NCBI GenBank assembly: GCA_025786725.1
Contig: JAHLTZ010000012.1
Location: 496,001 to 560,000, forward strand
Origin: Syncephalis fuscata
Taxonomy: Eukaryota > Zoopagomycota > Zoopagomycetes > Zoopagales > Piptocephalidaceae
Direction of reading: 5' to 3'
Length of the DNA: 64,000 nucleotides
Within the stretch, counting starts at the first letter, position 1; each line of letters opens with the position of its first letter. A model generated the notes under the pieces. The model did not search any database. It had not been told where the DNA came from and saw nothing but the letters and a program-made list of their open reading frames with translations. The translations under genes were made by a program, and so were the position numbers. This document shows, in pieces, positions 16,879-50,067 of the stretch.

Positions 16879-19800
16879 TAAAGTGTATTGGACTGCCATT
16901 TTAGTAACACTGAAAATGCCAATGCATTTAAAGTATGGTTATCCTATTAATAAATAATATGCCACATACGATGTAATTAGTTTAGTATATAGTATTATAC
17001 AGCTATACTTACTGTTTATAAATACAAGTTATTCGATACAAAATGTATGGTATTCAATTAGTGCATGATCAATGTTATAAAATGCCATTTATCAATTATT
17101 GATACAAGCCATTAAACAAAAATATCGCATAGTGTGTAATTAATATTAACGCTACTTACAAACTATTGGTATAAGTTATTAAACACATACGAAATATAGC
17201 ATGTAATTAATACATAGTTAATTGCCATACAATGCTGTTTACTGGCTATTGGTGCAATTTATCAAATAACCGCAGTACATGGCATTTAATTAGTATACCA
17301 TTCAATAATTATACAATGGTACTTACGCGCTATTAATGCAAGTTAACAAACAATCGCGGTATATAATATGTAGTTAGTATATAATTGATTACTATGTAAT
17401 GCTACATACAAGCTATTAATACAAGTCATTAAGCATACATATGTATAGCATATAATTAACATAAAATTGAATAATATAAATGTTACTTACTATCTATTAA
17501 TGCAAATCACCAAGCACATACAATGCATACCATGTAATTAGTACATAGTTAATGAATATACAATACCACTTACTTGCTATTAGCATAGTTATTAAGTATA
17601 AATTACACCATATGTTTAGTTTGTAATTGCTTAATAAATAGTATTACTTACTATCTATTAGTATAAACAATTAAACACGCATAGCGCATATAATGTAATA
17701 AGTACATAAGCAATGAATATGCAGTATCACTTACCTGCTGTTGGCGTAGCTATTACACACAATTATATTATATGTTTAGTATGCAATTGCTTAATAGACC
17801 ATACTACTTACGAGCTATCAATGCAAACCATCAAACACATAGTGCATAGTGCATGGTTAGTACATAGCTAATAAATATGCAGTGTCACTTACCTGCTATT
17901 GGCGTAGCTATTACACACAATTACATTATATGTTTAGTATGCAATTGCTTAATAGACCATGCCACTTACAAACTATTAATGTATTTGTAAAACACGTATA
18001 GTGCATAGTATATAATTAGTACATAGCTAATAAATATGCAGTGTCACCTACTTGATATCGGCGTAGCTATTACACACAGTTATATTACATGTTTAGTATG
18101 CAATTGCTTAATAGGCCATGCCACTTACGAGCTATCAATGCAAACCATCAAGCACATAGTGCATAGTGCATGGTTAGTACATAGCTAATAAATATGCAGT
18201 GTCACTTACCTGCTATTGGCGTAGCTATTACACACAATTACATTATATGTTTAGTATGCAATTGCTTAATAAACCATGCCACTTACAAACTATTAATGTA
18301 TTTGTCAAACACGTGTAGTGCATAGTATATAATTAGTACATAGCTAATAAATATGCAGTGTCACCTACTTGATATCGGCGTAGCTATTACGCACAATTAT
18401 ATTACATGTTTAGTATGCAATTGCTTAATAAACCATACCACTTACAAACTATTAATGTATTTGTAAAACACGTGTAGTGCATAGTATATAATTAGTACAT
18501 AGCTAATAAATATGCAATGTCACCTACTTGATATCGGCGTAGCTATTACACACAGTTATATTACATGTTTAGTATGCAATTGCTTAATAGACCATACCAC
18601 TTACGAGCTATCAATGCAAACCATCAAACACATAGTGCATAGTACATGGTTAGTACATAGCTAACGAATATGCAGTATCACTTACTCCCTATTAGCATAG
18701 TGATTAAACAGTTTATATTACATTAGTATGCAATTGCTTAATAAACCATGCCACTTACAAACTATTAATGTATTTGTAAAACACGTGTAGTGCATAGTAT
18801 ATAATTAGTACATAGCTAATAAATATGCAGTGTCACCTACTTGATATCGGCGTAGCTATTACACACAATTATATTACATGTTTAGTATGCAATTGCTTAA
18901 TAGACCATACCACTTACGAGCTATCAATGCAAACCATCAAACACATAGTGCATAGTACATGGTTAGTACATAGCTAACGAATATGCAGTATCACTTACTC
19001 CCTATTAGCATAGTGATTAAACAGTTTATATTACATTAGTATGCAATTGCTTAATAAACCGTGCCACTTACAAACTATTAATGTATTTGTCAAACACGTG
19101 TAGTGCATAGTATATAATTAGTACATAGCTAATAAATATGCAGTGTCACCTACTTGATATCGGCGTAGCTATTACACACAGTTATATTACATGTTTAGTA
19201 TGCAGTTGCTTAATAGGCCATGCCACTTACGTTCTAGTAATGCAAACCATCAAACACATAGTGCATAGTACATGGTTAGTACATAGCTAACGAATATGCA
19301 GTATCACTTACTCCCTATTAGCATAGTGATTAAACAGTTTATATTACATTAGTATGCAATTGCTTAATAAACCATGCCACTTACAAACTATTAATGTATT
19401 TGTAAAACACGTGTAGTGCATAGTATATAATTAGTACATAGCTAATAAATATGCAGTGTCACCTACTTGATATCGGCGTAGCTATTACACACAATTATAT
19501 TACATGTTTAGTATGCAATTGCTTAATAGACCATACCACTTACGAGCTATCAATGCAAACCATCAAACACATAGTGCATAGTACATGGTTAGTACATAGC
19601 TAACGAATATGCAGTATCACTTACTCCCTATTAGCATAGTGATTAAACAGTTTATATTACATTAGTATGCAATTGCTTAATAGACCATGCCACTTACAAA
19701 CTATTAATGTATTTGTAAAACACGTATAGTGCATAGTATATAATTAGTACATAGCTAATAAATATGCAATGTCACCTACTTGATATCGGCGTAGCTATTA

Positions 19801-21439
19801 CACACAATTATATTACATGTTTAGTATGCAGTTGCTTAATAGGCCATGCCACTTACGTTCTAGTAATGCAAACCATCAAACACATAGTGCATAGTACATG
19901 GTTAGTACATAGCTAACGAATATGCAGTATCACTTACTCCCTATTAGCATAGTGATTAAACAGTTTATATTACATTAGTATGCAATTGCTTAATAGACCG
20001 TGCCACTTACAAACTATTAATGTATTTGTCAAACACGTGTAGTGCATAGTATATAATTAGTACATAGCTAATAAATATGCAGTGTCACCTACTTGATATC
20101 GGCGTAGCTATTACACACAATTATATTACATGTTTAGTATGCAATTGCTTAATAGACCATACCACTTACGAGCTATCAATGCAAACCATCAAACACATAG
20201 TGCATAGTACATGGTTAGTACATAGCTAACGAATATGCAGTATCACTTACTCCCTATTAGCATAGTGATTAAACAGTTTATATTACATTAGTATGCAATT
20301 GCTTAATAGACCATGCCACTTACAAACTATTAATGTATTTGTAAAACACGTATAGTGCATAGTATATAATTAGTACATAGCTAATAAATATGCAATGTCA
20401 CCTACTTGATATCGGCGTAGCTATTACACACAATTATATTACATGTTTAGTATGCAGTTGCTTAATAGGCCATGCCACTTACGTTCTAGTAATGCAAACC
20501 ATCAAACACATAGTGCATAGTACATGGTTAGTACATAGCTAACGAATATGCAGTATCACTTACTCCCTATTAGCATAGTGATTAAACAGTTTATATTACA
20601 TTAGTATGCAATTGCTTAATAAACCATGCCACTTACAAACTATTAATGTATTTGTAAAACACGTGTAGTGCATAGTATATAATTAGTACATAGCTAATAA
20701 ATATGCAGTGTCACCTACTTGATATCGGCGTAGCTATTACACACAATTATATTACATGTTTAGTATGCAGTCGCTTAATAGACCATGGCACTTACAAGCT
20801 ATTAGTACAAATTATTAAACACATATAGTGCACAGTATATAATTAGTACATAGTCAATTGGTTCATAATGCTACTTACAAGCTAGTAATATATAGTATCA
20901 GGTACACGTAGTGTATTATATATGTTTAGTGTATATTAAATTGACATACAATTTCACTTACGAACTATTAAGTTTAAATTGATAATAAGACAATATTTAG
21001 TTTAGATAGTCTATTTTTACTGTGACTTACCTTTTATTAATTTAAATGCAATACATTCGTATCATCAGTGGAGTGTTTAGTTATTTTTTACAGTAAACCT
21101 ACTCTTAGCCAATGGTCCTAATTAAACCATTATTTATTAACAAGAAGCAATTAATTAGCATATCGTTAAACATATATAGCCAACACTTACCAACTGTTTA
21201 AGCATGTTTATCGCATGTATAGCAGCATTGAATAAGCGTTAGAACAATGGTCAATAATTACGGCTTACCAACTAATACCATTATCAGTTGAATATAATGT
21301 TAGTAAGCATAAGATTATTAAATATTTATTGTAGTTACAACATACCACGTCGAATTAGAGCCGACCTAGCATCCACCATGAATGTGAAGACTGTAAAAGT
21401 CACAATAATGATGCAGACGACGGCAATAGAAAGCTTCAT
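16879..21439 (-). CDS. Micro-exon gene 1: secreted protein with about 50 three-base exons (predicted)
   Basis: I know no named family for this gene. Exon 1 (21346-21439) starts MKLSIAVVCIIIVTFTVF, a clear signal peptide, and ends at ...LIRR plus one base (GTATGT donor). Then follow exons of three bases at 21269-21271 and 21191-21193, and a 15-base exon (21103-21117) encoding PLAK. After that comes an array of roughly 50 units whose only non-intron bases are triplets between a TAATAG-type acceptor and a GTAAG donor. The terminal exon begins after CAG at 16911-16912. In the phase set by exon 1 it reads LLKWQSNTL and stops at 16879-16881. About every fourth unit has lost its acceptor AG (ATATCAA instead of CTATTA on the plus strand), and those are probably skipped. 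The splice structure is inferred only from sequence; a single giant intron is the main alternative. Confidence 0.6.
16975..21000. repeat. Tandem intron-like array 1, with a 313-bp higher-order repeat
   Basis: Units of about 75-85 nt share the plus-strand core CACTTAC-NNN-CTATTA, followed by an AT-rich body with TTAGTACATAGCTAA. From 18520 to 20711 the unit with TCACCTACTTGATATC recurs every 313 bases (18520, 18833, 19146, 19459, 19772, 20085, 20398, 20711), a four-unit higher-order repeat. Within it one unit alternates between the triplets GAG and GTT, giving a weaker 626-bp period. Copies at both ends of the array are older and more diverged. This is the pattern expected of unequal crossing-over. 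Confidence 0.9.
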
Positions 21440-43093: not shown

Positions 43094-43099
43094 TTTATT
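43094..43099 (-). terminator. Poly(A) signal of micro-exon gene 2
   Basis: AATAAA on the minus strand in the context GTAATAAACATATG, the same position relative to the terminal exon as in the paralogue. The long open frame overlapping the terminal exon runs past this signal, which argues against that frame being coding. Confidence 0.6.
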
Positions 43100-43265: not shown

Positions 43266-46200
43266 CTAAAGTGTATTGGACTGCCATTCTAGTAACACTG
43301 ACAATGCTAATGCCTTTAAAGCATCGGTTATGCTATTTAATAAATAATAGGCCACATACGATATAATTAACATATCTGCCATTTTTGTATAATTATACCT
43401 ACCTTCTATTAATACAAATCATTAAGCATTACAATACATAACATATATTTAATACTTGTTTGGTTAATATACAACTCCACTTACTGGCTATTAATATAAA
43501 TTGGTAAGTATCCACAGCATATAGCATGCAATTAGTATGTAGTTAGTTAGTATACAATATTATTTACCGCCTATCAGCATAAATTATTAAATATATCCAA
43601 GATGTAGCATATAATTAGTACATATCCACTTACTGCATAATTTTACTTACCATCTATTAATACAAATTATTGAATATATAATGATATTAGATTAATGCAT
43701 AGTTAATATAAAATGTCACTTACGGCCTATCAGTATAGGTTATTAAACACACACAACATATAGCATGCAATTAGTACATAGTTAGTTAATATACAATATC
43801 ACTTACCAGCTATTAATACAGGTTATTTAGCATGCAATGGTATTTAATTAATGCATAGTTAATATAAAATATTACTTACGACCTATTAATACAGGTCATT
43901 AAACATCCACAACGTATATCATGTAATTAATACATATTTGCTAGTATATTATGTCACTTACGAGCTATCATTATAGATTATTAAACACACACAACATATA
44001 GCATGCAATTAGTACATAGTTAGTTAATATACAATATCACTTACCAGCTATTAATACAGATATTAGCATGCAATGGTATTAATTAATGCATAGTTAATAT
44101 AAAATATTACTTACGACCTATTAATACAGGTCATTAAACATCCACAACGTATATCATGTAATTAGTACATATTTGCTAGTATATTATGTCACTTACGAGC
44201 TATCATTATAGATTATTAAACACCCACAACATATAGCATGTAATTAGTACATATCCACTCACTGCATAATTTCACTTACCAACTATTAATACAAATTATT
44301 GAGCATGTAATAGTATTTAGTTAATGCATAATTAATAAATATAAAATTTCACTTACGAGCTATCCGTATAGGTTATTAAACATACACAACATATAGTATG
44401 TAATTAGTACATATTTGTTAGTATATAATGTCACTTACGACCTATCAATACAGGTTATTGAGTATTCACAACATATAGAATGCAATTAGTACGTAGTTAA
44501 TTAATATACAATGTCACTTACGGCCTATTAACACAATTATCAAGCACACACAGCGCATAACACATAATTAATGCATAATTGGTTGATACACAGTGTCACT
44601 TACCAACTATTAACACAATTATCAAGCACACACAGCGCATAACACATAATTAATGCATGATTGGTTGATATACAACGTCACTTACAAACTATTAACACAA
44701 TCATCAAGCACACACAGTGCATAACACATAATTAATGCATAATTGGTTGATATACAACGTCACTTACTGGCTATTAACACAATCAGCAAGCACACACAGC
44801 GCATAACACATAATTAATGCATAATTGGTAATATATGATGTCACTTACGGCTATTAACACAATCAGCAAGCACACACAGCGCATAACACATAATTAATGC
44901 ATAATTGGTTGATATACAATGTCACTTACCGTCTATTAACACAATCATCAAGCACACATAGCGCATAACACATAATTAATGCATAATTGGTTGATATACA
45001 ATGTCACTTACCGTCTATTAACACAATCATCAAGCACACACAGTGCATAACACATAATTAATGCATAATTGGTTGATATACAACGTCACTTACTGGCTAT
45101 TAACACAATCAGCAAGCACACACAGTGCATAACACATAATTAATGCATGATTGGTTGATATACAATGTCACTTACCGTCTATTGACACAATATCAAGCAC
45201 ACATAGCGCATAACACATAATTAATGCATAATTGGTTGATATACAGTGTTACTTACTGCCTATTAACACAATCATCAAGCACACACAGCGCATAACACAT
45301 AATTAATGCATAATTGGTTGATATATAATGTCACTTACCAACTATTAACACAATCAGAAAGCACACACAGCGTATAACACATAATTAATGCATAATTGGT
45401 TGATATACAATGTCACTTACGAACTATTAACACAATCATCAAGCGCACACAGCGCATAACACATAATTAATGCATAATTGGTTGATATACAATGTCACTT
45501 ACTGGCTATTAACACAATCAGCAAGCACACACAGCGCATAACACATAATTAATGCATAATTGGTTTATATACAATGTCACTTACCGTCTATTAACACAAT
45601 TATCAAGCACACACAGTGCATAACACATAATTAATGCATAATTGGTTGATATACAGTGTTACTTACTGCCTATTAACACAATTATCAAGCACACATAGCG
45701 CATAACACATAATTAATGCATAATTGGTTGATATACAATGTCACTTACGGCCTATTAACACAATCAGCAAGCACACACAGCGCATAACACATAATTAATG
45801 CATGATTGGTTGATATACAATGTCACTTACCGTCTATTAACACAATTATCAAACACACACAGTGCATAACACATAATTAATGCATAATTGGTTGATACAC
45901 AGTGTTACTTACCAACTATTAACACAATCATTAAGCATACACAGCGCATAACACATAATTAATGCATAATTGGTTAATATACATGTCACTTACTGCCTAT
46001 TAACACAATTATCAAGCACACACAGTGCATAACACATAATTAATGCATGATTGGTTAATATACATATCACTTACTGCCTATTAACACAATTATCAAGCAC
46101 ACACAGCGTATAACACATAATTAATGCATAATTGGTTGATATACAGTGTCACTTACCGCCTATTAACACAATCATCAAGCACACACAGCGCATAACACAT

Positions 46201-47366
46201 AATTAATGCATAATTGGTTGATATACAATGTCACTTACGGCCTATTAACACAAGCAGCAAGCACACACAGCGCATAACACATAATTAATGCATAATTGGT
46301 TGATATACAATGTCACTTACTGTCTTTTAACACAATCAGCAAGCGCACACAGCGCATAACACATAATTAATGCATAATTGGTTGATATACAATGTCACTT
46401 ACCGCCTATTAACACAATCATTAAGCACACACAGCGCATAACACATAATTAATGCATAATTGGTTAATATACAATGTCACTTACGGCCTATTAACACAAT
46501 TATCAAGCACACACAGTGCATAACACATAATTAATGCATAATTGGTTGATATACAATGTCACTTACGGCCTATTAGCACAATCATCAAGCACACACAGTG
46601 CATAACACATAATTAATGCATAATTGGTTGATATACAATGTCACTTACCAACTATTAACACAATTATCAAGCACGTACAGTACATAGCATGTGATTAGTA
46701 CATAGCTAGTTCATATACAATTTCACTCACGTTCTATCGATACAAATTATTAAACATACATCGGATAGCATGCCGTTAATGTCTAGTTGAGTTATAAACT
46801 ACGTCACTTACTAGCTATTAATATAGATTTTTAAACATGATTTATATTATATGTTTAGCGCATAGCTGGTTAGTATATGATGCACTCACGAGCTATCAGA
46901 GTTAAATTGGTAAAAACAATATTTGATTAAATAAATGAATTATTGTTTTTACCGTAGTTTACCTCCTATTGATGCAAATGCAGCACATTAGTATCATCAA
47001 TGTAATATCAATTTATTGCTTTATGTTAAACCTACTTTTAGCCAATGGCGCTGGTTGACCCATTGTATATTAAAACAATAATTAATCAGCATATCAGTAA
47101 ATAGTTATAATCAATACTTACCACTGTTTATGCGTGTGTTGATTGTGTGTATGGCAATATTCAATAAGTGTTGGAACAATAGTTCATAATCATGACTTAC
47201 CGGCTAATACCATCATCGGTTAAATATAATGTTAGTAAGCGTATCAAATTCCAAATTTATTGCAAAACATACCACGACGGATTCGGTTTGGTTTAGCATC
47301 CACCATGGCAGTATTGACCACGAAAGCCACGACGAGGGTGCAGACGACGGCAATAGAAAGCTTCAT
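43266..47366 (-). CDS. Micro-exon gene 2: secreted protein with about 48 internal micro-exons (predicted)
   Basis: Paralogue of the gene at 16879-21439. Exon 1 (47273-47366) encodes MKLSIAVVCTLVVAFVVNTA, a signal peptide, then ...RIRR plus one base. Intron 1 (47204-47272) has a perfect TACTAAC branch site. Internal exons: CCG (47201-47203), a two-base TG that is TTG in the paralogue, a 15-base PLAK exon, then 45 exons of three bases (one has two). Each lies between an acceptor TAATAG and a donor GTAAGT. Reading on in phase 1 gives no stop, though other phases are also open, so this is weak support. The terminal exon (from 43297) reads LLEWQSNTL and stops at 43266-43268. No function can be assigned. 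The donor-acceptor regularity and triplet hypervariability support exons; only transcripts can prove them. Confidence 0.62.
43380..46990. repeat. Tandem intron-like array 2
   Basis: Units of about 70-85 nt, very homogeneous between 44500 and 46660 (about 83 nt each; core GTCACTTAC-NNN-CTATTAACACAAT, then AAGCACACACAG and TAATTAATGCATAATTGG). In the central block the body is nearly invariant, yet the NNN slot takes at least nine different triplets. Between 43700 and 44250 units are older and arranged as repeating pairs or triples (CAG, GAC, GAG order repeated). Unlike array 1, almost every unit keeps both splice dinucleotides. Confidence 0.92.
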
Positions 47367-47512: not shown

Positions 47513-49755
47513 CCCATTATCATGATGGGACACCAACATGCTACGCTGTATAGAATATACCATTGATGTGCAATGTAAACCAATGACGATGCATCTACAT
47601 GGAGGCTTGAAGCATACGTATAAGATCCTATCAATGACATGTAGTGTGCAGCCAAGCCTTTAATTTAGCCTGTCCAGCATTTACACAAATGGCACAACAA
47701 TCTCAATCATCCAACACATATTTGGTAGAAATCCATTTATTGATGTGTACTGTTCTTTTACACACAATCGGCCATGCGATGCAAATTGCATCTATTGGTT
47801 CTAAAGAAACAGCAAGATGCATCGCTGTGATTTTACTTCAGCTTGCTCGGAGTTACACAGATAAGGCGACAATCTCAAGCACCAGTACACATGGGATAGA
47901 AATGTGCCTATTAATCTCTACTGTGTTGTATCACGCGGTTTGGCTACACAAAACAGAGGCTATTGGTCCTCAGAAATAGTAATGATGCATCGCTGTGCCT
48001 TTGCCGTTGATTTACAAAAACTCAATTTCCAATATCTGCATGCACCACAAACAGCGTGTAGCTCACGAGATATCGCACTGATGTCGAGCAGCCTTTTTGG
48101 ATCTTTTGTATCAAATCAAAGCTAGTCAGTTGAGCCAGCAAACTGTATTTTATCTACTTAAAATAGCTGTAATCCTTTTAATAGCCAGTAAATAAGAATT
48201 CTTACTCAAACAGCGCATAACAGCAGCATCAATGCATTAGGTTGTATTTCTTTACATACATCTACCATTATGCATAAACTAGTTATGGCTTTTTGTGTCA
48301 TGAGAATATATCGTTTGGTTCGTACATGCGTTCAATTTAGCACTGCGGCTTGGTCACAAAAATAAGCAGTTTCTTTTTAGCACAGTGCTACTATATGTTG
48401 ATACAGGCTGTGTTGTTATTCATGAAATACTTTTATTAATTATTGACTGTTAAGCAAATGCATTTTAATAGTAAACACTGTGCTTAGCTACTTATGTCGC
48501 TGGTCACCTGACATTGAAAATGAAGCCAACCAAATGATATGCAACTATATGTACAGATATCAAGGCCATGTCTATCAAATTGCCCTAGTCGAATACGTTC
48601 AGCTTTAATCGTGTAACATCAGTGCATGATACATCAAGTAGTAGCAATTCTACTGTGCACATGACTTACACAGTAACAGCTTGATTAAAATAACAGGCCT
48701 GCAATTTGAAATCTGCATTAGAGGCTAGGCATTTGGATTGTATTTTTGCATCCTGCAACCCAACACTAGTGGTAAATTGTGCAACTTGTAACCATTTTGG
48801 TGATATTGTCCACTAATTGCAATATTTGCTGTCTGTTTTTCTTTATACTTCTGCGCATCAAATGTCATTTCCTAAATAATATGGAAACGAGCAATATTCA
48901 AGTACAATTTAGTTATTTAGTTGGTATTATAGCGTATATGGCCATATGTATTAGTCACAGCCACTGAGTGTTATCGATAACTAATGGCTAGTTACTGTGC
49001 TTACTGCTCGTTATCGGTACTGCATTCATGCTTATTGCTGCGTCTATTCTGGAGCCGATGTATATCTGTTTATGTTTTAATGCATTGTGTCTCGCACATA
49101 TCACATGTCATTGTAGCAATAGCAATTAGCTGGTTATTTTTGTACTGTAAACATCAACAGACACATTATACAACAGACAATGCCTTCAACAATTCTATTG
49201 TTAGTGGCTATACTTAATATCTATGTTTAAGTAACTATAGAGATACTTATGTTCCTAAAATAAGTGTAACCTACGCTTAAGATTGCGTAGCACGGGTTTG
49301 CACTTTGATCTCCCTGCTACAAAAGTGGTAAAATGCGTGAATATAAACGACTAAACAATCACATTGAACATGATATCACTTATACTTTGTTAAACTAGTG
49401 GCTATATTACTTGATTTGCATGTTCTTACTAATCCTGTATTTATTTAACCATGCAAGCATTCATGTGACGGTTAGGCTTGCATACATGATGTTCTACTTA
49501 TGTTACTTCCTTTCCTACCTTTATATATATATTGAGCATAACGCATAGCCATTTAATAAAATATCAACATTTATTCCTTCTATTCAATTGTGTCTTTCAA
49601 CGCTAACAACAACTGTGTTTATTCAAATTGTCTTTAACAGCTGTTTTATTTTACTTCATTGGCTATTTCGTAATACCACAACGCATCCTATATTCTCCCT
49701 ATATCATATCCTGTTTCCTACACTATTGTTTGTTTATTCCAACTGCTTGGCTAAC
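47513..49755. other. Gene-free spacer between micro-exon gene 2 and a secreted-protein gene
   Basis: Open frames here (for example 47644-47979 and 48984-49217) lack recognisable composition and I do not call them. The part at about 48590-48790 matches 22480-22720 of the other island. A short inverted repeat, GTAGCA...TGCTAC, lies at about 49285-49320. TATATATATATTGAG at about 49522-49536 is a TATA element for the downstream gene. Confidence 0.5.
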
Positions 49756-50067
49756 ATGAAGATCTTGTTTGCAATTGTTTGTGCCATTAGTGTCATGGCT
49801 GTGGCCTATGTAATTACTGTGGAAGCCAATCCAATGCCGAATGCACCAACGTCTAAGCGTCTCAGACGACATGTTAAGCCTAGGCTCCGCAGAGAAAGCG
49901 GACCTATAGCTATCGGTAGTGTTATAGAGAAAAAATCTGTTCAACTTAACACGCCACCTCCAGGGAAACAGTACATCTGGACTTGTAGCCAATCCACCGT
50001 CTTCACTCCCTTTTCTGAATTTACTTCTTCAAAGGCATGCTGGCAGCTTGTACCAATAGATCGTTAA
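49756..50067 (+). CDS. Small secreted basic protein, unknown family
   Basis: I do not recognise the family. It is a single exon of 103 aa. The N-terminus MKILFAIVCAISVMAVAYVI is a signal peptide and resembles the MKLSIAVVC leader of the micro-exon genes. Cleavage is likely after VEA. The next segment, NPMPNAPTSKRLRRHVKPRL, contains clustered basic sites (KRLRR, RLRR) typical of Kex2-type propeptide processing. The C-terminal domain has two cysteines (WTCSQS and KACWQL), compatible with one disulfide. An earlier in-frame start at 49588 is less likely because it would bury the signal peptide. It lies divergently from micro-exon gene 2, so it may share a regulatory region. A secreted effector or peptide precursor is an inference. 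Confidence 0.7.
   Translation: MKILFAIVCAISVMAVAYVITVEANPMPNAPTSKRLRRHVKPRLRRESGPIAIGSVIEKKSVQLNTPPPGKQYIWTCSQSTVFTPFSEFTSSKACWQLVPIDR

What the first reader, a model, noticed from the sequence alone, without database searches (positions are those of the whole stretch)
43266..47366. A gene whose coding sequence appears to be dozens of single-codon (3-nt) exons embedded in a tandem intron array
On the minus strand the repeat reads acceptor TAATAG, three bases, donor GTAAGT, over and over, about 45 times, between a signal-peptide exon and a terminal exon with a poly(A) signal. Unit boundaries coincide with splice signals, the spacer is almost always exactly three bases, and a TACTAAC branch site sits in intron 1. 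Micro-exon genes for secreted proteins are known in Schistosoma and, in another form, as aphid bicycle genes, but their exons are longer. A serial array of one-codon exons is new to me. All exons are symmetric, so any skipping pattern keeps frame and one locus could emit a large family of secreted peptides.
Basis: partly seen in the sequence, partly recalled or inferred. Interest (0 to 1): 0.96.

Follow-up and report, generated by a model that had tools for sequence, protein, structure and literature searches.

The report
Fungal genes with one-codon exons
A fungus from a genus that parasitises other fungi carries a large family of secreted-protein genes in which nearly every codon appears to sit in its own three-base exon, dozens in a row, so the protein would have to be spliced together one amino acid at a time.

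Summary
W1 (47366-43328, minus strand) has a 94-nt signal-peptide exon, 45 three-base exons, one 15-nt and two 2-nt exons between ~79-nt introns, then a terminal exon. A second array gene lies at 21439-16939. Genome-wide, TAATAG-N3-GTAAGTG occurs 1201 times; spacers of 4-20 together 56 times (backward control 40). The signal-peptide exon has at least 150 matches.

Joined in exon 1's frame, the triplets read as protein: 0 stops in 161 codons of six held-out loci (exon-order shuffles average 7.5), 2 in 532 in the main set (17.9). Some arrays spell a six-cysteine peptide like that of intronless paralogs, and array terminal exons carry a TAA aligned with those paralogs' stop codons. Triplets are hypervariable (diversity 0.62) between near-identical introns (0.05). 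This argues against a satellite inside one intron, and for real single-codon exons.

Not shown: any transcript, complete inclusion, or combinatorial skipping. W1 itself has two frame-breaking 2-nt exons and is a weaker example than L048, L040, L052 or L043 (83 triplets).

The parts
47273..47366 (-). W1 exon 1: signal peptide and short propeptide ending RR; 94 nt, leaves one base (G) over (phase 1); donor GTATGT
   Evidence: at least 150 related matches in the genome
47231..47237 (-). TACTAAC branch-site match in intron 1
43403..47203 (-). W1 micro-exon array: 45 three-nt exons, two 2-nt exons and one 15-nt exon separated by introns of median 79 nt
47036..47050 (-). 15-nt exon CGCCATTGGCTAAAA (donor GTAGGT): APLAK in phase 1, matching EPLAK in the intronless paralog L024/P0126
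47122..47123 (-). 2-nt exon TG (three nt, TCG, in paralogs L021 and L022)
44849..44850 (-). 2-nt exon CC
44504..46727 (-). homogenised part of the array: 82-bp unit, 27.2 copies, 91% matches; introns nearly identical, triplets hypervariable
43328..43332 (-). start of terminal exon, CA|TAA: phase-1 stop codon aligned with the stop codons of intronless paralogs
43094..43099 (-). AATAAA poly(A)-signal match
21346..21439 (-). W2 (second gene of the same design): signal-peptide exon 1
17160..21271 (-). W2 micro-exon array: 41 three-nt exons, the 15-nt PLAK exon (21117-21103), 10 copies of a 15-nt exon CTACGCCGATATCAA and one apparent 0-nt step; product ...PTPISIWKPTPISIWT...
16939..16943 (-). W2 terminal exon start GA|TAA (phase-1 stop)

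Best explanation
A family of secreted-protein genes, seen so far only in Syncephalis fuscata, in which most codons after the signal-peptide exon are separate three-base exons, in phase 1, each followed by an intron of about 79 bases. Gene models hold from a handful to 83 triplets; intronless paralogs also exist. Shown from sequence: exact 3-nt spacing genome-wide, an open frame that depends on exon order, a cysteine pattern and a stop codon shared with intronless paralogs, and triplets that vary far more than the introns beside them. Inferred: (1) neighbouring introns cannot be committed to splicing at once across 3 nt, so they are removed one after another, each step recreating an exon end beside the next donor, as in recursive (ratchet) splicing but leaving one codon behind. 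(2) Arrays grow and shrink by duplication or loss of whole codon-plus-intron units, which changes the protein by one residue without a frameshift. (3) The fast triplet change reflects diversifying selection on secreted proteins, perhaps in contact with a fungal host.
For: Genome: 1201 exact N3 matches vs 56 for spacers 4-20 combined, control 40. 663 of 707 internal exons in 24 gene models are 3 nt (the model favours 3, the counts do not). Phase-1 stops: 0/429 vs shuffle mean 10.8; 2/532 vs 17.9 with revised models, 2/393 vs 13.7 with one member per paralog group; held-out 0/161 vs 7.5; 0 of 5000 shuffles as low in each. Of the two stops one is at the end of L029, just before the model's terminal exon, one near the end of L043. 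Phase 2: 34/429, 52/532, 12/161. Six-cysteine pattern C..C...C.{5,16}C.{3,6}C...C in L040 and L048 as modelled and in L050 read from its third exon; 0 of 50,000 exon-order shuffles of each has it. Five array products align with P0127, L041 and L042 (intronless loci) and P0121 (annotated protein, locus not seen) with four Cys columns invariant in the mature part. Array terminal exons with NN|TAA align at the stop codon of 5 intronless paralogs; the chain finder, blind to stops, ended there in W2, L026-L028, L031, L032, L035 and L036. RR-A-V-APLAK-R in arrays vs RRAVEPLAKR intronless. Codon-usage score: phase 1 0.001, phase 0 -0.222, phase 2 -0.319. Triplet diversity 0.62 vs intron 0.049 over 22 W1 units; triplets diverge 1.8-5 times faster than introns in 7 of 8 paralog pairs. 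T-first triplets avoid a purine next (13/121 vs 165/542, Fisher P 4e-6, post hoc).
Against: No RNA or peptide evidence: two protein searches with predicted products returned 13 annotated S. fuscata proteins (5 and 12, 4 shared) and, read by eye, none contains an array-encoded peptide; the database may hold no RNA of this species. The two models that were mapped, P0123 and P0124, read on into a micro-intron. W1 has two 2-nt exons; read with both, it leaves exon 1's frame yet is also open to the TAG at 43266. Phase 0 is also stop-free (0/449, 0/557, 0/169), so stops alone do not separate phases 0 and 1, although L052 has a phase-0 stop. The strict six-Cys pattern is in 2 of 24 models as built (3 with L050); L047 has six Cys at other spacing, L038 five, L046 and L049 four; L052 is cut and does not show it. 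TACTAAY is present in only 10 of 46 W1 introns and 1 of 55 in L029. Poor models: L027, L028, L039, L044, L053. L038 vs P0121 P=0.13. In L027/L028 triplets are not faster than introns (0/12). Paralogs are not independent samples.
Confidence: 0.88

Rival explanations
1. The array is a tolerated satellite inside one intron: exon 1 is spliced directly to the terminal exon, or the array is removed stepwise with the triplets left in the lariats.
For: The units are a genuine tandem repeat. No transcript data. Branch-site matches are weak in many units.
Against: Order- and frame-dependent stop avoidance, also in held-out loci; cysteine framework and similarity to intronless paralogs; triplets 1.8-5 times faster than introns in 7 of 8 pairs; exact 3-nt spacing.
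Confidence: 0.06
2. Array genes once worked but are now mostly pseudogenes; the intronless paralogs are the functional copies.
For: W1 has two 2-nt exons; L043 and L046 one each; L022, L025, L031, L038, L039, L045 and L053 have introns of 416-890 nt within the array.
Against: Open frames through 28-32 exons in L040, L048 and L052 and cysteine spacing kept in L040, L048 and L050; splice-core differences between paralogs of only 0.8-6.4%; array and intronless loci are intermixed among the best signal-peptide matches.
Confidence: 0.12
3. Combinatorial micro-exon gene: arrays are expressed mainly as many isoforms through variable skipping of triplets.
For: Skipping a triplet keeps frame, and leaving out any one exon adds a stop in only 8 of 162 cases (L040 0/30, L048 3/31, L029 5/54, L021 0/47). 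Alternative use of micro-exons is reported for Schistosoma genes (PMC4015677, passages). Leaving out W1's two 2-nt exons gives a C-terminus like that of L021.
Against: No isoform data. Conserved Cys spacing in part of the family argues for complete ordered inclusion there.
Confidence: 0.25

Closest known systems
Micro-exon genes (MEGs) of Schistosoma
   Same: Secreted proteins of a parasite; [quoted passage not shown] very small exons make up much of the coding sequence; expanded families (PMC4015677, passages). Symmetric exons: recalled.
   Different: MEG micro-exons are longer and not tandem copies of one unit (recalled); here almost every internal exon is one codon, up to 83 in one gene model, in satellite-like arrays. 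Differential splicing not shown here.
Aphid bicycle genes
   Same: Fast-evolving putative effectors with many small internal exons of one phase; a 'megacycle' gene with more than 100 micro-exons (PMC9168663, abstract start and passages).
   Different: Exons of tens of bases (recalled), internal exons almost all phase 2, not phase 1; no tandem intron units known to me.
Recursive (ratchet-point) splicing in Drosophila
   Same: Juxtaposed acceptor and donor; sequential removal in which a step recreates a donor at the exon junction (PMC8605326, passages).
   Different: Ratchet points lie mostly in long introns, look like 0-nt exons and their cryptic exon is usually skipped; here each step would leave a codon, in introns of about 79 nt.
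Isolated 1-nt and 3-nt exons
   Same: Show that spliceosomes can include exons this small: a 1-nt exon in Arabidopsis APC11, 3-nt exons known before it (PMC4674806, abstract and introduction). Short 3-bp exons are also mentioned for fungal mitochondrial genes, a different intron type (PMC12308204, passage).
   Different: Single such exons between ordinary ones, not whole proteins.
SP7-like effectors of arbuscular mycorrhizal fungi
   Same: Repeat-bearing secreted fungal effectors with a conserved intron before the first repeat (PMC11333574, passages).
   Different: No micro-exon array in the passages read; the paper reports the family only in Glomerales and Diversisporales.

Membership tests
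Micro-exon genes (MEG type) | signal-peptide exon followed by many very small internal exons that make up much of the coding sequence | tested here: met
   exon 1 plus up to 83 three-nt exons; the signal peptide is judged by eye, no predictor was run
Micro-exon genes (MEG type) | internal exons symmetric (multiples of three; recalled) | tested here: met
   lengths 3, 6, 12 or 15 in 694 of 707; W1 itself breaks it twice
Micro-exon genes (MEG type) | protein variation by differential splicing | not testable with these tools
   no RNA data held
Micro-exon genes (MEG type) | homology to Schistosoma MEG proteins | not tested
   searches returned only S. fuscata proteins; no direct comparison made
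Bicycle genes | internal exons predominantly phase 2 | tested here: not met
   exon 1 ends in phase 1 in all array genes modelled and 3n exons keep it
Recursive splicing ratchet points | acceptor directly juxtaposed to donor | tested here: inconclusive
   sites are 3 nt apart (AG|NNN|GTAAGT); one apparent 0-nt step in W2 at about 21031
Recursive splicing ratchet points | sequential removal shown by lariats or intermediates | not testable with these tools
   no RNA data
Satellite within one intron | triplets free of coding constraint | tested here: not met
   stop and cysteine tests
SP7-like effectors | family signature and phylogenetic range (Glomeromycotina) | not tested
   organism is Zoopagomycota; signature not compared

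The most novel reading that the evidence does not exclude
An unprecedented gene architecture, exon = codon: secreted proteins, in one model more than 80 residues past the signal exon, are written as satellite-like arrays of [one codon + intron] cassettes, read by codon-by-codon ratchet splicing. Unequal exchange of cassettes adds, deletes or swaps single residues without frameshift, while homogenised introns and hypervariable codons let the family diversify quickly against fungal hosts, possibly with variable cassette inclusion as a second layer of diversity.
Probability: 0.4. Interest if true: 0.98.

Novelty: new variant of a known kind. Interest (0 to 1): 0.94.

Why it matters
If transcripts confirm it, these genes set an extreme for spliceosomal coding: dozens of consecutive one-codon exons, where neighbouring splice sites could hardly be recognised at the same time. 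They would be a natural test bed for intron-definition and sequential splicing, a clear case of a tandem repeat whose unit is an intron plus a codon, and a source of protein innovation residue by residue. They also suggest that gene annotation can miss most of a family with at least 150 signal-peptide exon matches: the two public models mapped here are wrong, as 3-nt exons escape ordinary gene prediction.

Tried and rejected
Satellite in one intron: held unlikely after shuffle and homology tests. Triplet-as-codon frame (phase 0): stop-free too, but rejected because exon 1 ends in phase 1, array terminal exons have TAA in phase 1, codon usage prefers phase 1, the cysteine framework was found in phase 1 and not in the phase-0 readings printed for L038, L040 and L052, and L052 has a phase-0 stop. 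The terminal reading ITDALKALALSVLLEWQSNTL (stop at 43266) fits only if both 2-nt exons are used; kept as a possibility for W1, not as the family model. SP7-type effector: considered because of the fungus and the repeats; the passages read describe no micro-exon array. The first organism guess (Mortierella-like, from adenosylhomocysteinase hits) was replaced by Syncephalis fuscata. Pfam: nothing above cut-off for five annotated members (best PF10793, E 0.051, for P0121). AlphaFold2 on P0127 aligned with three relatives: mean pLDDT 63, pTM 0.32, too poor to search. Protein searches for transcript-derived proteins found none. The DNA comparison of L048 with the P0127 locus crashed and was not repeated. 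L044 and the L039 and L053 models were not interpreted further. One search held L050 one residue short; it was repeated correctly, which lowers the Cys columns invariant in all nine from five to four (the first Cys is kept in the eight other than P0121).
Full report
WHAT IS THERE. On the minus strand a 94-nt exon (47366-47273) encodes what looks by eye like a signal peptide and a short propeptide ending in RR, and leaves one base over (phase 1). It is followed by TAATAG|NNN|GTAAGT units about every 82 nt. The gene model has 45 three-nt exons, two 2-nt exons and introns of median 79 nt; a 15-nt exon at 47050-47036 appears in the model and was skipped by the later ones. A second gene of the same design is at 21439-16939. 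Most of the W1 array is an 82-bp tandem repeat (44504-46727, 27.2 copies, 91% matches).

ORGANISM AND FAMILY. The window is C24:496001-560000 of a 28.95-Mb, 299-contig genome. Proteins named Syncephalis fuscata (BDF19DRAFT) sit on contigs of 837042, 571950, 180743, 1005272 and 443508 bases, the lengths of C256, C57, C236, C1 and C157. S. fuscata is Zoopagomycota, Piptocephalidaceae. PMC6784888 (passages) treats Syncephalis pseudoplumigaleata as an obligate mycoparasite; that S. fuscata lives likewise is inferred from the genus. The exon-1 peptide has at least 150 genomic matches (150 scored of 332 candidates). Of the 20 loci first fetched (L021-L040, chosen from the top of that list), 13 have models with six or more 3-nt exons, two (L027, L028) have four, four (L024, L033, L034, L037) run on without an intron at that point, and L023 showed no array.

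EXACT SPACING. Genome-wide TAATAG-N3-GTAAGTG: 1201 matches, backward control 1. TAATAG-N{4,20}-GTAAGTG: 56, control 40. Acceptor-to-donor distances counted without a length model also peak at 3 in the array loci (44 in L021, 45 in L029, 24 in L040).

READING FRAME. Chains of exons were found with splice-site matrices that hold no codon information; the later models favour 3-nt exons. In the exon-1 frame (phase 1) there were 0 stops in 429 codons, against a mean of 10.8 when exon order is shuffled within runs (0 of 5000 as low); phase 2 had 34, as shuffled. With revised models: 2 of 532 vs 17.9, and 2 of 393 vs 13.7 with one member per paralog group. The two stops lie at the last exon of the L029 chain and near the end of L043. 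In six loci fetched afterwards and not used for the matrices: 0 of 161 vs 7.5, phase 2 12. Phase 0 also has no stops (0/449, 0/557, 0/169), in part because triplets beginning TA are almost absent (1 of 663) and TG rare (12). A later locus, L052, has 32 exons all of 3 nt, is open in phase 1 and has a stop in phase 0; only 294 of 20,000 order shuffles of it are open. Codon usage taken from eight ORFs of the window scores phase 1 highest: 0.001, against -0.222 (phase 0) and -0.319 (phase 2); shuffled phase 1 gives -0.050, sd 0.021.

SIMILARITY TO INTRONLESS PARALOGS. (a) L048, L040, L038, L050, L047 and L052 spell cysteine-rich peptides, e.g. L048 RRGDPAQCAACVENCKRRTGLDWGKCRNGSCRTICLQSSHYSNTL* and L052 RRGAKECKECVKNCLNANSTDSKPTADYCWDKCRQ... 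Contiguous ORFs without introns encode P0127 (locus L051) RRGPKNPAKCKECINECEGVPKPSMKEKCNKPGRCKAECA*, L034 (=L041) and L042; P0121 is an annotated protein whose locus I did not see. Five array products and these four align with four invariant cysteines in the mature part (five, which held L050 one residue short). The strict six-Cys pattern is in 2 of 24 models as built (L040, L048) and in L050 when its third exon is read as 6 nt with a GC donor; 0 of 50,000 shuffles of each has it (for L050 the first base was held fixed). L047 has six Cys at another spacing, L038 five, L046 and L049 four; L052 is cut before the end and does not show the pattern. A five-Cys pattern in L038 and L040 occurs in 0 and 2 of 20,000 shuffles. 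Local alignment scores beat shuffles at P below 0.02 in 10 of 11 array-intronless pairs (L038-P0121, P 0.126, is the exception). (b) Arrays such as L021, L022 and L029 read RR-A-V-APLAK-R with APLAK on a 15-nt exon; intronless P0126/L024 reads RRAVEPLAKR. (c) In 12 array genes I looked for AG-NN-TAA-YY near the end. In 11 (W1, W2, L021, L026, L027, L029-L032, L035, L036) the site found aligns with the 3' region of intronless L024, L033, L034, L037 and L042 so that its TAA falls on their stop codon; for L022 the search took a spurious upstream site, with GATAACCGATGC further on. The TAA was asked for, so its presence is no test by itself; but the chain finder, which knows no stops, had ended at the same acceptor in W2, L026, L027, L028, L031, L032, L035 and L036, 8 of 24 models. 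L038, L040 and L047-L049 instead read a short tail (...YSNTL* or similar) into that region.

HYPERVARIABLE CODONS, CONSERVED INTRONS. In 22 W1 units with 79-nt introns near consensus (27 introns have that length) mean diversity is 0.62 in the triplet and 0.049 in the intron; in L021, 23 units, 0.58 and 0.066. Between paralogs triplets differ more than introns: W1/L021 0.407 vs 0.081, L021/L022 0.456 vs 0.223, W1/L022 0.459 vs 0.230, L035/L036 0.121 vs 0.034, L030/L031 0.310 vs 0.170, L038/L039 0.542 vs 0.221, L038/L040 0.722 vs 0.289; the exception is L027/L028 (0 of 12 vs 0.013). Exon 1 differs by 0-3.2% in these pairs except L038/L040 (9.6%); only one exon-1 base was compared in L038/L039. 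Misaligned units would inflate the triplet figures. Introns within a gene are related to each other (random pairs 0.67-0.88 identity vs 0.57-0.62 shuffled, 12 genes), as expected if units spread by duplication.

A SPLICING SIGNATURE IN THE TRIPLETS. When a triplet starts with T, the G of the acceptor AG plus T could form a competing donor G|TRNGT. T-first triplets have a purine second in 13 of 121 cases against 165 of 542 otherwise (Fisher P 4e-6); ordinary ORFs of the window have NTR 465, NTY 382. This test was thought of after seeing the data, and TAG triplets may be lost because the chain finder can take them as acceptors.

HOW IT MAY WORK. Exons of 1 and 3 nt can be spliced (PMC4674806, abstract and introduction). 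With 3 nt between AG and GT, both neighbouring introns can hardly be occupied at once (inference), so removal should be sequential; after each step the joined exon again ends at a donor. That is the logic of recursive splicing (PMC8605326, passages), except that a codon stays in the mRNA. Full inclusion is the simplest reading for the cysteine subfamily. Whether triplets are also skipped to make variants is open: leaving out any one exon adds a stop in 0 of 30 (L040), 3 of 31 (L048), 5 of 54 (L029) and 0 of 47 (L021) cases, so the frame would mostly tolerate it.

THE WINDOW GENE ITSELF. W1 is not the best example. With both 2-nt exons the frame moves to phase 0 and then phase 2, both stretches are open, and the terminal exon reads to the TAG at 43266. 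With both left out the frame stays in phase 1 and the product, RRAAPLAKR...NAILGNANDAIFGRPLARPARPGHGAKA*, resembles that of L021...NAILGNAIGRPLARPGHGAK. Sequence cannot decide between regulated skipping, use of both, or decay.

LITERATURE. Ten searches were made. Those for 3-nt, single-codon or one-codon exons (40, 73), for micro-exons with fungi or effectors (13: 20 of 58 listed; 16: 10 of 61 listed) and for Syncephalis listed nothing that I recognised as serial one-codon exons; I saw listings, and passages or abstracts of the papers named here, not whole texts. One listed abstract states that functional micro-exons had not been described in filamentous fungi before (PMC11121469). The single hit mentions 3-bp exons in fungal mitochondrial genes (PMC12308204, passage). 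The library lacks most subscription journals and holds no preprints, so this is not proof of absence.

VERDICT. I file it as an extreme new variant of micro-exon genes, with a fair chance that it deserves a class of its own.

Noticed in passing
window 18066-20733 and 17735-18212, minus strand: W2 holds 10 copies of a 15-nt exon CTACGCCGATATCAA (product PTPISIW repeats); some units carry CTACGCCAATAG|CAG or CTACGCCAACAG|CAG instead, so the acceptor appears to have moved 12 nt and the exon is 3 nt, still in frame.
   Followed up: partly
L038 about 2210-2625; introns of 416-500 nt in L022, L025, L031, L039, L045 and L053: A dispersed element of roughly 400 bp seems to be inserted in array introns of several loci (similar pieces seen in L022, L025, L031 and L038; the others judged by intron length only). 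Identity not determined.
   Followed up: no
window 49549-50067, plus strand: An ORF with a different secreted-looking N-terminus (MKILFAIVCAISVMAVAYVITVEANP...KRLRR...RLRR), possibly a distant member or a parallel secreted family next to W1.
   Followed up: no
G000 C24:473719, 539244 (W1) and 604304: Near-identical terminal exons (98-100%) recur on C24 about 65 kb apart, suggesting segmental or dispersed duplication of the array gene.
   Followed up: no
G000 C2:519672-522523 (minus) and C2:537333-540191 (plus): An inverted pair of arrays with nearly the same triplet series; L044 covers one, and no signal-peptide exon was identified for it.
   Followed up: partly
L043 and L050: Some units appear to use GC donors (GCAAGT) instead of GT.
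   Followed up: partly
P0123 (L045) and P0124 (L025): Public gene models of two family members read on into a micro-intron, so these members look misannotated.
   Followed up: yes
arrays, 24 gene models: Triplets starting with TA are almost absent (1 of 663), which also helps to make phase 0 stop-free; cryptic-donor avoidance is one possible reason.
   Followed up: partly
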